Positions 53,489-59,476 of a stretch of DNA of 64,000 nt are shown here, piece by piece. The stretch is taken from the NCBI GenBank assembly GCA_018902545.1, contig JAHIQM010000016.1:310001-374000 (forward strand), given 5' to 3'. Every line of letters begins with the position of its first letter. The first letter of the stretch is position 1. A program made the translations under genes and the position numbers. Source of the DNA: Pseudomonadota bacterium. Its GTDB lineage: Bacteria > Desulfobacterota > Desulfovibrionia > Desulfovibrionales > Desulfomicrobiaceae. Below the pieces are notes generated by a model. That model searched no databases, was not told where the DNA came from, and saw only the letters and a list, made by a program, of their open reading frames with translations.

Positions 53489-53758
53489 TCAAGAATTGGG
53501 ACGATTCTCTACGTCGGCTTCCAGCAGCATTCGCACGTAGCGCGTATATGGGATTCCCTTGGCCTTGGCCTTGGCTTTCACCGCTTCCAGCAGCCCCACG
53601 GGAATGCGCATGTTGAGCGCCGCAGCCTTGGGTTCAATTTCAAATCGCATCGGTTTGAAACCGGAAAGGTCATACTGCGACAGGTCGGCCTGCTCGACAA
53701 ATTCCTCGGCTTCTGCATCGTTATGCAGCGATGGCATCTGCTTAGATTTGGCTTTCAT
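53489..53758 (-). CDS. brnA: BrnA-type antitoxin
   Basis: 89 residues. N-terminal acidic part and a C-terminal ribbon-helix-helix region (NMRIPVGLLEAVKAKAKAKG, IPYTRYVRMLLE) typical of BrnA. It would bind BrnT and repress the operon. It overlaps brnT by 17 bases, downstream of it, in the usual toxin-first order. Confidence 0.88.
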   Translation of the reverse strand: MKAKSKQMPSLHNDAEAEEFVEQADLSQYDLSGFKPMRFEIEPKAAALNMRIPVGLLEAVKAKAKAKGIPYTRYVRMLLEADVENRPNS

Positions 53759-54026
53759 AGTGAGAAATCTCCTTTTTATGCATGTAGCGGGCGCTGATAG
53801 GACGCAGTTTTATCAAGCCGTCATTCTCCCTCAGCATGAAAACGAGGAAAACATACCGTCCTGCTTGAGTTTTCCCAATGGCCCTCATACGCGATTCATC
53901 GGGGCACGGGTCCGGCAATACTGCTGGCTCGCCAAGCAGCACCTGCTCAATCTCTTCTCGGGATACGCCGTGCTTGCCGCATTTCGGCCAGTTACCGCTA
54001 TCCCACTCGAATCCCGCAATCTTCAT
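53742..54026 (-). CDS. brnT: BrnT-type toxin (RelE-like ribonuclease)
   Basis: 94 residues. N-terminal FEWDSGNWPKCGKHGVSREE is the BrnT hallmark (FEWDxxKxxxNxxKHGV), and the later strands (GRYVFLVFMLRENDGLIKLR, PISARYMHKKE) complete the RelE-like fold. It cleaves RNA and is neutralised by BrnA. The start lies at the edge of a tauE pseudogene, so the module appears to have entered there. Confidence 0.88.
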   Translation of the reverse strand: MKIAGFEWDSGNWPKCGKHGVSREEIEQVLLGEPAVLPDPCPDESRMRAIGKTQAGRYVFLVFMLRENDGLIKLRPISARYMHKKEISHYESQI

Positions 54027-54033
54027 TATTTAA

Positions 54034-54051
54034 GTGTAGTCATTTGTGTAG
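54034..54051. promoter_or_regulatory. Candidate BrnA operator
   Basis: Direct repeat GTGTAG at 54034 and 54046 (12 bases apart), 8-25 bases upstream of brnT. Direct repeats on one helix face suit a ribbon-helix-helix repressor. Confidence 0.4.
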
Positions 54052-54060
54052 ACAAAAGCA

Positions 54061-54330
54061 ACACGCCTGTGGCGATGAAGGCATCCTTGCCAAGGCCAGC
54101 GCCGAGGAGAAAGGCGCTACGGAACGCCCCCTGGTTGCCCGACAGCCCGCCGAAAAAACCGCTGACGACCCCGCCCAGGGGCAGCCAGACCGGCGAAATG
54201 GCCATTTTCTTCCCGCCGCGCAGTTCCAGGGCGACGATGAGCACGCCGACCAGAAGCTTGACCGAGTGACGAATAATTCGCCTCCGGCCAACGAAGAGGA
54301 GAAAAGCGGCTCAAAGTCCGAAACCCTGAC
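54061..54330 (-). pseudogene. Truncated, frameshifted tauE copy
   Basis: The minus strand matches the intact TauE/SafE gene at 58706-59476 over about 270 bases, including WLPLGG-VSGFFGGLSGNQG and AFRSAFLLGAGL. Compared with that gene, one G is missing near 54263, which breaks the frame between SLAGGELFV and the next helix. Homology ends at 54330 and 54061, so both ends of the gene are lost. Confidence 0.85.
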
Positions 54331-54410
54331 TCCCCATCTCCGTTCCAGACCGGATGAAAGCACATAAAATAATATAATTATTCAACTTTATTGCGCCATC
54401 CGCTTTCATC

Positions 54411-54440: not shown

Positions 54441-54483
54441 AATGGTTGTTTATACGCTTATTTTTATGCCGTCCGGAGTCATC

Positions 54484-54813
54484 ATGAATCACGACGCCGA
54501 TCTCACGGGGATGGAGCAGCCCCTGGCCGACCTGGCCTTTCTGGCCCGGGCCCTGTCCGACGAAAACAGGCTGCGCATCCTGCTCCGCATCGGGACCGAC
54601 AGGTTGTCCGTCACCCAGATCGCCGAAGACCTGGGACTGTCCCAGCCGCTGGTCTCGCATCATCTCAAGGAGCTCAAACGGGCCCTGCTGGTTGATGTCG
54701 AACGCCGGGGGCCGTTCATTCATTACGGAATCAGCCGACCGGAGGTCCTCGACGTCCTCCGCGCCATCGGCAACCTGGCCCGGCGGCTCATCGCGAGCAG
54801 GACAAGCTTCTAG
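54484..54813 (+). CDS. ArsR-family regulator without cysteine
   Basis: 109 residues from ATG 54484 (MNHDADLTGMEQ), GGAG six bases upstream. Helix-turn-helix: ARALSDENRLRILLRI, LSVTQIAEDLGLSQPLVSHHLKEL, wing at RRGPFIHYGI. It contains no cysteine at all, so it cannot use the thiol sites of ArsR, SmtB or persulfide sensors such as SqrR. It heads the selenoprotein operon and probably represses it; the signal is unknown. Confidence 0.85.
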   Translation: MNHDADLTGMEQPLADLAFLARALSDENRLRILLRIGTDRLSVTQIAEDLGLSQPLVSHHLKELKRALLVDVERRGPFIHYGISRPEVLDVLRAIGNLARRLIASRTSF

Positions 54814-54887
54814 CAGGTCACCCCAAAATGGCGATCTGCGAATTTTTAATTTTTCAACTGTCCGCCAGGACTGCCAAGGAGAAACAC

Positions 54888-55337
54888 ATGGATGAGCTCA
54901 AAAGCATGCTCGAACGCATGGACCCGGCCCAGGCCGCCACATCCGTGGCCCTGGCGGCACGGGAACTCTTCCCGCTGCTCGGTGAGGAAGATCGGCGCGA
55001 ATTCATCGAACGCATGCTCGGTGAACCCGGCGAGGACAAGGTTGTCGGGATGGTCCATCTCTGACTGGCCGAATGCATGGACGAAGGTGTCGATCCAACA
55101 AAGATGTGTCAGAGTTTAGTGGATAAAGTGGCCCAATCGCGGCAATTGATGGCGCTCGCGCACCCCGAAGTGCTCGGTCTCTTCGAGGATTGGCTCGAAG
55201 AACTGGAAGAGGAGGTTGTCCGGCTCGCGGCCATGGGTCCGCTCAACCCGCAAAACCTTGCTGGCAGAACAGGCCTTTCAAAGGCCGGGGCGCAATTCAT
55301 CCTGACCAAACTGAGGCGCGAACAAAGAATAGAATGA
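54888..55337 (+). CDS. Putative selenoprotein with U59 (unknown family)
   Basis: 149 residues if the in-frame UGA at 55062-55064 is read as selenocysteine (GMVHLU-LAECMDEG). AAGGAG lies six bases before ATG 54888. The frame is open on both sides of the UGA, with similar helical, acidic character. Before it: ERMDPAQAATSVALAARELF; after it: a helix with DEGVDPTKMCQSLVDKVAQS and EVLGLFEDWLEELEEEV. The C-terminal NLAGRTGLSKAGAQFILTKL resembles a short helix-turn-helix. C63 lies four residues after U59. A hairpin at 55078-55097 fits a SECIS. Read as a stop, it would give a 58-residue product and an orphan frame with no ribosome-binding site. Confidence 0.75.
55078..55097 (+). promoter_or_regulatory. 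bSECIS candidate for U59
   Basis: TGGACGA - loop AGGTG - TCG(a)TCCA: seven base pairs with one bulged A. The loop starts 20 nt after the UGA and carries G at positions 2 and 3, within the known limits for bacterial SECIS elements. Confidence 0.7.
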
Positions 55338-55347
55338 GGTGCACGTC

Positions 55348-57081
55348 ATGAACGCCAGAGCCACTTTCGCACTGATCGCCGTCGCGGTGCTTTTGTCCAT
55401 CGGCTTGATCCTGATGACGGACAGAGCCACCACAACCCCCACCTGGGACGACGCCGTTGGGGAAGCCCAGCGTGGAGGCTACAGGCTGCTGACCACCGAT
55501 GATCTGAAAAAACTCTACGAGGACCGGACACCGGACCTGCTTCTGGTGGACACCCGCCAGGATTGGGAACACCGGACCGGCCATATCGAGGGATCGGTCA
55601 ACTTCTCCATGGAGCCCACGGCCTGGGCTCGATGGACCAAGCGCGGGGATATCGAACGGCTGCTCGGACCGGACAAGGACAGGCCCGTCGTCTTCTACTG
55701 AGCGGGTCTGACCTGAGTCCGCAGCGACTCGGCGGCCCGGGTGGCCGTCTCCCTCGGTTACAGGAACGTTTACCGCGACCCCAAGGGCTTTCCCGACTGG
55801 CAGGCCGCCGGACTCCCCGTGGAGACAGGTCCGGTTGCATCACCCTCCGCGCAGGCCGCTGACGATCCGGGACCACTTTCGGGGTGGACCATGGTCTGGA
55901 CCCTGCTCGGCATCTTCCTGGGCGGGATGGCCCTGAACCTGACTCCCTGCGTCTATCCCCTGATCCCCATCACAGTCTCGTATTTCGGCGGCCGGTCGGG
56001 CCACTCCGGGAGCCTTGTGGGGCATGGCATCCTGTACATGGTCGGTCTGGCCCTGACGAACTCGGCCCTGGGCGTCGTCGCCGCCCTGACCGGGGGCATG
56101 ATGGGGGCCATGCTGCAAAGCCCGGTCGTGCTGATCGGCATTTCATCACTCCTAGTAATTTTTGCCACTAGCCTGTTCGGATTCTGGGAACTGCGCCTGC
56201 CGATGGCTCTTACGCGGGTCGCTTCAAAGTCCCATGCGGGCTACTTCGGAACCTTCTTCATGGGCCTGACCCTCGGCGTCGTGGCCGCGCCATGCCTCGG
56301 GCCCTTCGTGCTGGGCCTTTTGACCTGGGTCGCGGGCATGGGCAGCGCCTGGATCGGCTTCGCCGTGTTCTTCACGCTTAGCCTCGGCCTTGGTCTGCCT
56401 CTTTTCGTCCTGGCCATGTTCTCGGGGAGGATCGAAAAACTCCCCCGCTCCGGCGAATGGATGATCTGGGTCCGCAAACTCATGGGCTGGGTTTTGCTGG
56501 GCATGGCCGCATACTTCATCCGCCCGCTCCTGTCCGAAAGCGCCTCGATTCTGACATTGTCCGCCGTCGCTCTGGCCGCGGGCATCCACTTGGGGTGGAT
56601 CGACAAGGCCACGGCAGGCTTTGCGGCTTTCAAATATATCAAGCCCGCAATCGGCGTCCTGGCCATCACCGTCGCAATAGTTCTCTCTGGCTCATGGCTC
56701 CTGCGCGGTCCGGGCGTGACCTGGGAGCAGTATTCACAAACCCTGCTCGACGAGGCCAAGGCGGCGGGAAAGCCGGTCATCATCGACTTTTCGGCCACAT
56801 GGTGCGCGCCTTGCCGCGAGCTTGACGAAAAAACGTTTCGCGACCCGGCGGTAGTGCGCATGACCCAGGACGACTTCATCATGATCAAGGTCGACCTGAC
56901 CCGTGGAGGCAATGCCGAGCACGAACGTCTGATCTCGGCGTACGAGGTGAAAGGCGTCCCGACGGTCATCTTCATTGACGCGCAGGGCAGGGAAAGGAGG
57001 GATTTGCGACTCGTCGACTACCTGCCGCCCGACGCTTTTGTCCAACGCATGGAAAACCTGAAAAAAACGAACGAGGAGTGA
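55348..57081 (+). CDS. Selenocysteine rhodanese-DsbD-thioredoxin fusion protein
   Basis: 577 residues if UGA 55699 and UGA 55714 are read as Sec (U118 and U123). ATG 55348 has GAGG eight bases upstream. Domains: an N-terminal anchor (about 5-24); a periplasmic rhodanese (LLLVDTRQDWEHRTGHIEGS, then VVFYUAGLTUVRS, then LGYRNVYRDPKGFPDW), about residues 45-160; a DsbD-beta membrane domain with C201 (NLTPCVYPLIP) and C316 (VAAPCLGPF); and a C-terminal thioredoxin with C486-x2-C489 (WCAPC) and cis-Pro at GVPTVIF. Both Cys of the usual rhodanese CxxxxC loop are Sec. The rhodanese takes the place of DsbD-alpha, so electrons from the cytosol would reach a selenium-based sulfur-transfer site. Confidence 0.85.
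55713..55732 (+). promoter_or_regulatory. bSECIS candidate for U118
   Basis: CTGAGTC - loop CGCAGC - GACTCGG: seven base pairs including one G-U. The loop starts 18 nt after UGA 55699-55701 and has G at position 2. The left arm contains the second UGA (55714-55716). Confidence 0.65.
55731..55749 (+). promoter_or_regulatory. bSECIS candidate for U123
   Basis: GGCGGCC - loop CGGGT - GGCCGTC: seven base pairs including one G-U. The loop starts 21 nt after UGA 55714-55716 and has G at positions 2-4. It shares two bases with the hairpin for U118, so the two cannot both be fully formed at once. Confidence 0.7.
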
Positions 57082-57083
57082 CG

Positions 57084-57395
57084 ATGCTCAAGGTCCATTT
57101 GTTCCTGAACGAGCCCAACGGCAAACCCTGAAAACATTTTCTGGAGATGCTGCCCAGGTTGGGCGCAAAATATGACATCGAACTGGAAGTGACCTCCCAG
57201 CCCAACGCCCAGTACCAGACTGACGAGTATTTCGACCTTGAGCTCCCTGTAGCTCCGGCCGTCATGGTCGGTGAAGAGGTAGTGACCGAAGGCTCGGACA
57301 TCGCCGAAGATAAGCTCGAAGCCGCAATACGTCGGCACCTCGACCTGCCCGAACTGCCGCGCAAAGGTTTCGTGAGCCGCCTACTGGGCGCATGA
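57084..57395 (+). CDS. Thioredoxin-like selenoprotein with U16
   Basis: 103 residues if UGA 57129-57131 is read as Sec: NGKPUKHFLEMLPRLG. GAGGAG lies just before ATG 57084, two bases after the previous stop. The first strand (KVHLFLN), the redox residue at the start of helix 1, and a proline before a strand (LELPVAPAVMVGEEVV, a cis-Pro position) give a thioredoxin/glutaredoxin-like fold with a lone Sec and no resolving Cys. It is cytoplasmic, and may reduce the DsbD part of the preceding fusion or carry selenium or sulfur. The frame has no Cys at all. Confidence 0.78.
57148..57167 (+). promoter_or_regulatory. bSECIS candidate for U16
   Basis: TGC(t)GCCC - loop AGGTT - GGGCGCA: seven base pairs with one bulged T. 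The loop starts 24 nt after the UGA and closely resembles the loop of the U59 element (AGGTG). Confidence 0.75.
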
Positions 57396-58705: not shown

Positions 58706-59476
58706 CTAGATCAATCCCACAGCCAGCCCCCCGCCCAGCAGCAGGAGCATCGCGCCGACCAGCAGCCTCACCGTCTGGATGGTGATTTTTTTGAGCACCT
58801 TGCGGCTGTAGTGTACGCCCAGGAAGGCCGAGAGAGTGGCGGCGACTACAAGGCCCGCGTTGTCGGTGATCATGTGCGAGCCGGACATGCCCGCGTAGAC
58901 GCCAAGGCGCGTCACGTCGACCACGCAGGCCAGGACCACGCCCGTGGCGATGAAGGTTTCCTTGCTCAGACCCGCGCCAAGAAGGAAGGCGCTGCGGAAG
59001 GCCCCCTGGTTGCCCGACAGGCCGCCGAAGAACCCACTGACGATCCCGCCCAGCGGCAACCATGCGGGCGAAATGGCCTGCTTCTTCCCGCCGCGCAGTT
59101 CCTGGGCGGCGAAAAAGACGATGAGTACGCCAACCAGGAGCTTGACCGGAGTGATGAAGAACTCGCCGCCAGCCAACGAATAGGAGAAAAGCGGCTCAAG
59201 GTCCGAAACCCTGACCAGCAACCACGCTCCGGCGAAACTCGCGACCAGGGCGGGCAGTCCGAAGCGCAGGCTCACACCCCAGTCGGCCTGCCGACCGAAC
59301 AGGGCGAGCTTGAAGAGATTGTTGGCGAAATGCACCACCGCGGTCACGGCCACAGCCGTCTCGATGGGAAAAAAAATGGCCATGACCGGGGTCAGCACCG
59401 TGCCGAGGCCAAAGCCGGAAAAAAGGGTCAGCCCGGAAACGGCCAGACTGGCCAGACAGATGACGAGATAATCCAT
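58706..59476 (-). CDS. TauE/SafE-family sulfite/sulfonate exporter
   Basis: 256 residues, seven to eight helices. TauE/SafE pattern: LFSGFGLGTVLTPVMAIFFP at the N-terminus and GGIVSGFFGGLSGNQGAFRS in the second half. The family moves sulfite, thiosulfate or organosulfonates across the inner membrane. It lies close to two rhodaneses and the selenoprotein operon, so a sulfur link is plausible. A broken copy is at 54061-54330. Confidence 0.85.
   Translation of the reverse strand: MDYLVICLASLAVSGLTLFSGFGLGTVLTPVMAIFFPIETAVAVTAVVHFANNLFKLALFGRQADWGVSLRFGLPALVASFAGAWLLVRVSDLEPLFSYSLAGGEFFITPVKLLVGVLIVFFAAQELRGGKKQAISPAWLPLGGIVSGFFGGLSGNQGAFRSAFLLGAGLSKETFIATGVVLACVVDVTRLGVYAGMSGSHMITDNAGLVVAATLSAFLGVHYSRKVLKKITIQTVRLLVGAMLLLLGGGLAVGLI

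What the first reader, a model, noticed from the sequence alone, without database searches (positions are those of the whole stretch)
54888..55337. Unknown selenoprotein with Sec in a VHLU motif
The reading frame passes through UGA 55062 (GMVHLU) and remains open for 91 codons with a consistent acidic helical composition. The sequence before the UGA is not a known redox fold. C63 follows four residues later, a possible U-x3-C partner. The C-terminal segment resembles a helix-turn-helix, so it might be a redox-linked regulator or ligand-binding adaptor rather than an enzyme.
Basis: partly seen in the sequence, partly recalled or inferred. Interest (0 to 1): 0.8.

Follow-up and report, generated by a model that had tools for sequence, protein, structure and literature searches.

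The report
TsoA selenoprotein of the Tso operon
The gene really does appear to read a UGA "stop" as selenocysteine, but the protein is not unknown: it is TsoA, an already catalogued selenoprotein of sulfate-reducer-type bacteria whose biochemical job has not been shown.

Summary
In detail: one 149-codon gene (54888-55337) runs through UGA 55062. The product is TsoA (NCBIfam NF045695, E 2.7e-62, above cut-off), in a standard Tso ('three selenoprotein') operon: TsoR, TsoA, TsoB (two UGA), TsoC (one UGA). So it is not an unknown selenoprotein. Sec decoding is well supported: all 33 aligned relatives keep the UGA, a hairpin just downstream has near-frozen codons and a compensatory pair change, and the genome has tRNA-Sec, SelA, SelB and SelD. 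Frame length alone is weak evidence (16% of comparable TGAs here do the same). No Cys form was found. Function is unproven. A TsoR-type gene lies upstream in 47 of 49 loci; downstream, rhodanese TsoB and DsrE-like Sec proteins largely replace each other, which points to sulfane-sulfur or selenium transfer. Distant relatives have a Met-rich front instead of the Sec site, which points to soft-ligand binding. Residues 93-149 are HTH-like; the Sec region is poorly modelled. TsoR has no conserved Cys, so TsoA as its co-sensor is possible but untested. Known family, function open, moderate interest.

The parts
54442..54813 (+). TsoR, ArsR/SmtB-type regulator (likely true start ATG 54484)
   Evidence: NCBIfam NF045707 E 3.4e-38, above cut-off; TsoR-type gene upstream of tsoA in 47 of 49 loci; no conserved Cys in the family
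54876..54881 (+). AAGGAG ribosome-binding-site-like sequence of tsoA
   Evidence: read directly from the sequence
54888..55337 (+). tsoA, complete gene, 149 residues with Sec at 59
   Evidence: NF045695 E 2.7e-62 over residues 5-146; 33-row alignment
55062..55064 (+). UGA decoded as Sec59
   Evidence: TGA in 33 of 33 aligned loci and one TGA inside every full-motif hit of the phylum search
55074..55076 (+). Cys63 codon (U-x3-C)
   Evidence: invariant column
55078..55097 (+). bSECIS-type hairpin UGGACGA-AGGUG-UC(G)AUCCA
   Evidence: 97.4% of cells paired, A-U to G-C exchange in 6 sequences; codons GAC GAA GGT GTC almost frozen
55107..55109 (+). Cys74 codon, third invariant soft residue
   Evidence: invariant column
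55164..55334 (+). C-terminal HTH-like three-helix domain of TsoA (residues 93-149)
   Evidence: AlphaFold pLDDT 93-95 per 10-residue block; VIA-align Z about 6-7 to wHTH domains
55348..57081 (+). tsoB: rhodanese - DsbD transmembrane - thioredoxin fusion with two Sec codons (GTG 55339 also possible as start)
   Evidence: NF045694 E 1e-294; Pfam rhodanese, DsbD_TM and thioredoxin domains
55699..55701 (+). first Sec UGA of tsoB (VVFYUAGLTU, rhodanese active site)
   Evidence: sequence, and NF045694 match across it
55714..55716 (+). second Sec UGA of tsoB
   Evidence: sequence, NF045694 match, hairpin downstream
57084..57395 (+). tsoC, NEPxGxxU selenoprotein
   Evidence: NF045708 E 5e-43
57129..57131 (+). 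Sec UGA of tsoC
   Evidence: NEPNGKPU motif; hairpin downstream

Best explanation
The finding is tsoA, second gene of a Tso (three selenoprotein) operon, tsoR-tsoA-tsoB-tsoC. Shown here by comparative evidence: UGA 55062 is a Sec codon with a bSECIS-type hairpin just downstream; the protein is one conserved 149-residue chain with invariant U59, C63 and C74 and an HTH-like C-terminal domain; the genome has the Sec machinery. Inferred (about 0.35): TsoA is a cytoplasmic soft-ligand protein whose U59-x3-C63 pair on one helix, with C74, takes up sulfane sulfur, selenium or a thiophilic metal(loid) handled by the co-encoded sulfur-transfer selenoproteins (rhodanese TsoB, or DsrE-like Sec proteins in other genomes). 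TsoB's DsbD-thioredoxin part and TsoC would supply reducing equivalents, and TsoR would switch the operon. The confidence given is for identity and Sec decoding, not for the mechanism.
For: Family hits above curated cut-off for TsoR, TsoA, TsoB and TsoC. UGA in all 33 aligned loci, conservation continuing on both sides. Hairpin at 55078-55097 with loop AGGUG: six sequences changed A-U to G-C, the 3' change being synonymous (GAT to GAC) while the 5' one alters D65 to G; codon identity at GAC/GAA/GGT/GTC is 1.0/0.94/0.94/1.0 against an expected 0.51/0.50/0.27/0.29. tRNA-Sec (87 bits), SelA, SelB and a TGA-containing SelD in the same genome. TsoR-type gene upstream in 47 of 49 loci; downstream sulfur-transfer and thiol-redox genes: TsoC 18, DsrE-like Sec 16, TsoB 15, plus TauE-type transporters, SQR-like and SelD in a few. 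TsoB and DsrE-like genes avoid each other (p 0.007-0.018). Tso operon in the literature: PMC13188914.
Against: Decoding is comparative only, no mass spectrometry. The folding energy of the 61-nt region is not unusual (z -0.56), and only one pair of the helix shows a two-sided change. For the mechanism: no Pfam or PDB relative of the Sec domain, the Sec region is modelled at pLDDT about 50-70, and neighbours in some loci include ArsM-like methyltransferases and DUF5714, so sulfur is not the only reading. SelA occurs in 355 of 395 genomes of the phylum, so its presence beside TsoA adds little.
Confidence: 0.93

Rival explanations
1. TsoA is the sensing half of a two-protein switch: it binds or is oxidised by the effector at U59/C63/C74 and acts on TsoR or on DNA through its HTH-like end, since TsoR itself has no conserved cysteines.
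For: TsoR-TsoA is the only near-constant pair (47 of 49 loci), also in distant relatives with other downstream genes; 20 of 61 TsoR proteins beside full-length TsoA have no Cys at all and no Cys column is conserved; residues 93-149 are confidently HTH-like.
Against: The domain is three helices ending at the last residue, without a wing or a shown DNA-contact surface; HTH folds also serve protein contacts; non-Cys ligand sites in TsoR were not ruled out.
Confidence: 0.25
2. TsoA is a soft-metal(loid) binding protein or chaperone (arsenic, copper or mercury type) rather than part of sulfur transfer.
For: Relatives of the C-terminal half have a Met-rich front in place of the Sec site (L083: U59 to M, C63 to M with EGxNPxxMC kept; L084, L088, L090, L101 Met-rich), and those in L083-L090 still lie downstream of an ArsR-type gene; ArsM-like genes lie within 6 kb on the same strand in 7 loci (4 of them with the Met-rich relatives) and DUF5714, part of 'metal-binding double selenoprotein MbdU', in 5.
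Against: Homology at the Sec site itself is weak: most of these matches start at residues 58-72. The commonest neighbours of full-length TsoA are sulfur-transfer and thiol-redox proteins.
Confidence: 0.25
3. The frame ends at UGA 55062 and the rest is a separate gene starting at ATG 55077 or is non-coding.
For: UGA is a stop by default; an ATG-started frame 55077-55337 exists.
Against: In 33 of 33 aligned loci the frame is continuous through TGA; residues 60, 61 and 63, which lie between the UGA and that ATG, are invariant; RNA hairpin conservation; full Sec machinery.
Confidence: 0.02

Closest known systems
NCBIfam NF045695, LULAXC motif selenoprotein TsoA
   Same: Full-length match above the curated cut-off, LULAEC motif, Sec position
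   Different: Nothing found that sets this copy apart; it is an ordinary member
Tso 'three selenoprotein operon' (Haft and Tolstoy 2025, as cited in PMC13188914)
   Same: TsoA, TsoB, TsoC selenoproteins plus TsoR regulator in one run of genes
   Different: No TsoX or TsoY was seen within 6 kb of the window copy, while other loci have them; the original paper could not be read here
Met-rich TsoA-like proteins beside ArsR-type genes (loci L083-L090; also L101)
   Same: C-terminal half about 30-40% identical; ArsR-type gene upstream
   Different: Score below the TsoA cut-off (63.7 and 58.9 against 170 bits); no Sec at position 59; Met-rich front

Membership tests
TsoA (NF045695) | whole-protein score above the curated cut-off of 170 bits | tested here: met
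   209.4 bits, residues 5-146 on profile 2-144
TsoA (NF045695) | LULAxC motif with Sec encoded by UGA | tested here: met
   HLULAEC, TGA 55062; TGA also in all aligned relatives
Tso operon | co-encoded TsoB and TsoC selenoproteins and TsoR | tested here: met
   NF045694, NF045708, NF045707 all above cut-off
bacterial selenoprotein | SECIS-type hairpin shortly downstream of UGA with G in the apical loop | tested here: met
   hairpin 55078-55097, loop AGGUG, covarying pair; rule itself from own knowledge
bacterial selenoprotein | host has tRNA-Sec, SelA, SelB, SelD | tested here: met
   all above cut-off in G000
bacterial selenoprotein | selenium present in the purified protein | not testable with these tools
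   needs mass spectrometry
wHTH DNA-binding protein | winged helix-turn-helix fold | tested here: inconclusive
   three helices match wHTH domains, Z about 6-7 over about 50 residues, but Z under 8 can be a common arrangement and no wing was modelled

The most novel reading that the evidence does not exclude
TsoA is a Sec-based sensor or ligand-delivery partner for an ArsR-type regulator without conserved cysteines, and belongs to a wider family in which the selenol/thiol site is exchanged for methionine thioethers, including an uncatalogued Met-rich branch with its own in-frame UGA at a different position (MVERUMQMC).
Probability: 0.2. Interest if true: 0.65.

Novelty: already known. Interest (0 to 1): 0.33.

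Why it matters
It confirms a UGA read-through that ordinary gene calling cuts, and places it in a known but functionally uncharacterised operon. The comparison adds leads that I did not take from the annotation: a near-constant TsoR-TsoA core, near-exclusive use of rhodanese TsoB or DsrE-like Sec proteins downstream, no Cys form of TsoA, and Met-rich relatives. Together these make 'what does Tso do?' testable as sulfane-sulfur or selenium transfer against soft-metal handling. Whether the original Tso paper already reports them could not be checked.

Tried and rejected
Rfam found no element in the window at gathering threshold and nothing credible at the relaxed one. Pfam has no family for TsoA (DUF4681 at E 0.085, below cut-off, not accepted). 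The PDB sequence search gave only protein A helices and the like, judged a composition match. Foldseek had no hit at E 0.001 for the whole model or for residues 1-92; the Sec-bearing part is too poorly modelled to name a fold. Co-occurrence with SelA was tested and is uninformative (90% base rate). No TsoA relative in the plasmid collection. Cys homologues (MVHLC) were sought in 395 genomes and not found; matches without TGA start at residue 58 or later, except one Met-rich protein matched from 44. The gene-order table cuts genes at UGA and was replaced. The original Tso paper and the 2023 selenoprotein paper are not held.

Full report
Identity. The frame 54888-55337 translates through TGA 55062 to 149 residues. 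NCBIfam names it TsoA (NF045695, 209 bits against a cut-off of 170) and names its neighbours TsoR (54442-54813), TsoB (55348-57081, 978 bits) and TsoC (57084-57395), all above cut-off. TsoB carries two further in-frame UGAs (55699, 55714) at the rhodanese site VVFYUAGLTU, and TsoC one (57129). A 2026 review lists TsoA, TsoB, TsoC, TsoX and TsoY and describes the Tso operon as 'three selenoprotein operon', citing Haft and Tolstoy 2025 (PMC13188914). The family is therefore already known; I found no report of its function.

Is the UGA a Sec codon? The evidence is comparative. A scan of the GTDB species genomes gave 32 further loci, mostly titled as deltaproteobacterial or Desulfobacterota-type records, all with TGA at the same place. 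V56, U59, L60, A61, C63, E66-P70 and C74 do not vary. A phylum search found matches in 46 of 395 genomes; every hit that spans the motif holds one TGA, and no hit has Cys there. Hits without a TGA cover only the later part of the protein, apart from one Met-rich protein matched from residue 44.

The RNA element. The stretch 55078-55097 folds as UGGACGA-AGGUG-UCGAUCCA with one unpaired base, its loop starting 20 nt after the UGA. Codons GAC GAA GGT GTC are nearly frozen across the alignment, while codons further on vary as expected. Eight sequences have GGC (Gly) in place of GAC (Asp65); six of these also changed the partner codon GAT to GAC, a silent change that restores the pair, and the other two keep a G-U pair. 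Relatedness among these eight was not corrected for. Some more distant TsoA genes have different hairpins at a similar place, several with GG in the loop. The second Sec codon of tsoB and that of tsoC are followed by comparable hairpins. The spacing and the loop G agree with the bacterial SECIS rules as I know them (own knowledge).

The host. The same assembly has tRNA-Sec (87 bits), SelA, SelB, and a SelD that itself contains a TGA. This is necessary but not specific, because SelA occurs in 355 of 395 genomes of the phylum.

Anatomy. AlphaFold with 33 sequences gives an all-helical protein: helices 2-9, 13-30 and 33-44, then a poorly determined region with U59 and C63 on one helix (51-63) and C74 near the start of the next (70-90), then a confident three-helix HTH-like end, 93-149. 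The end matches wHTH domains at Z about 6-7 over about 50 residues, which is suggestive only. Folding residues 1-92 alone did not improve the Sec region enough for a meaningful fold search.

Neighbourhood. In 47 of 49 loci a TsoR-type gene lies within 1.3 kb upstream on the same strand; in L086, L087 and L089 another gene lies between. Of the two exceptions, L099 begins at a contig end and L017 simply gave no TsoR match. Downstream genes vary: TsoC in 18 loci, DsrE-like proteins 16, TsoB 15, ArsM-like 7, TsoX 6, DUF5714 5, fatty-acid hydroxylase 5, TauE-type, SQR-like and DsrE2-like 4 each, TsoY 3, SelD 2 (counts use BLAST at 1e-5 within 6 kb on the same strand, so short or diverged proteins can be missed). 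TsoB and DsrE-like genes share only one locus (Fisher p 0.007 to 0.018; not corrected for kinship, and the locus sets were entered by hand). Both are sulfur-carrier types (own knowledge), so the replacement suggests sulfane sulfur or selenium transfer.

Distant relatives. The C-terminal half also occurs in proteins with a Met-rich front (L083-L090, L101), those in L083-L090 again with an ArsR-type gene upstream. In L083 the positions of U59 and C63 are Met while EGxNPxxMC is kept. In L086, L087 and L089 an in-frame UGA sits in MVERUMQMC; upstream of it synonymous codon differences exceed others (16 to 4 summed over three non-independent pairs), which suggests one coding frame. All three come from two genomes of one genus, so this is a lead only. 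The alignment has L083 in a wrong frame and should not be used for that row.

Regulator. Beside full-length TsoA, 20 of 61 TsoR proteins have no Cys and no Cys column is conserved (the set contains some near-duplicates, including the window itself twice). The label 'metalloregulator' is therefore not supported by a thiol site; other ligand sites were not examined closely.

Mechanism. I favour a cytoplasmic soft-ligand carrier working with the sulfur-transfer partners (about 0.35), with a TsoR co-sensor (about 0.25) and a metal(loid)-binding protein (about 0.25) close behind. These overlap, and none is shown.

Noticed in passing
L086, L087, L089 (TsoA-like gene; e.g. L087:4803-5156): Met-rich TsoA-like protein with an in-frame UGA (MVERUMQMC) followed by a hairpin; synonymous differences dominate upstream of the UGA, so it may be an uncatalogued selenoprotein.
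   Followed up: partly
window 54026-54370 (-) and 58706-59476 (-): A fragment about 80-85% identical to part of the intact TauE/SafE-type transporter lies just upstream of the operon, so the tso genes are flanked by an intact and a broken copy.
   Followed up: partly
window 53489-54026 (-): BrnT-type toxin and CopG-type antitoxin gene pair next to the operon.
   Followed up: no
L006, L010, L011, L012, L018, L022, L024, L030 and others, downstream of tsoA: Small DsrE-like proteins with in-frame UGA (FYVUGVCMK or LQAUGKL motifs). Of three tested, two match Pfam DsrE and none reached a named NCBIfam selenoprotein family (one weak YedF hit).
   Followed up: partly
L007, L023: SelD-like gene with an in-frame UGA (RTCGUAAKIG) near tsoA, followed by a TauE-type transporter gene.
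   Followed up: no
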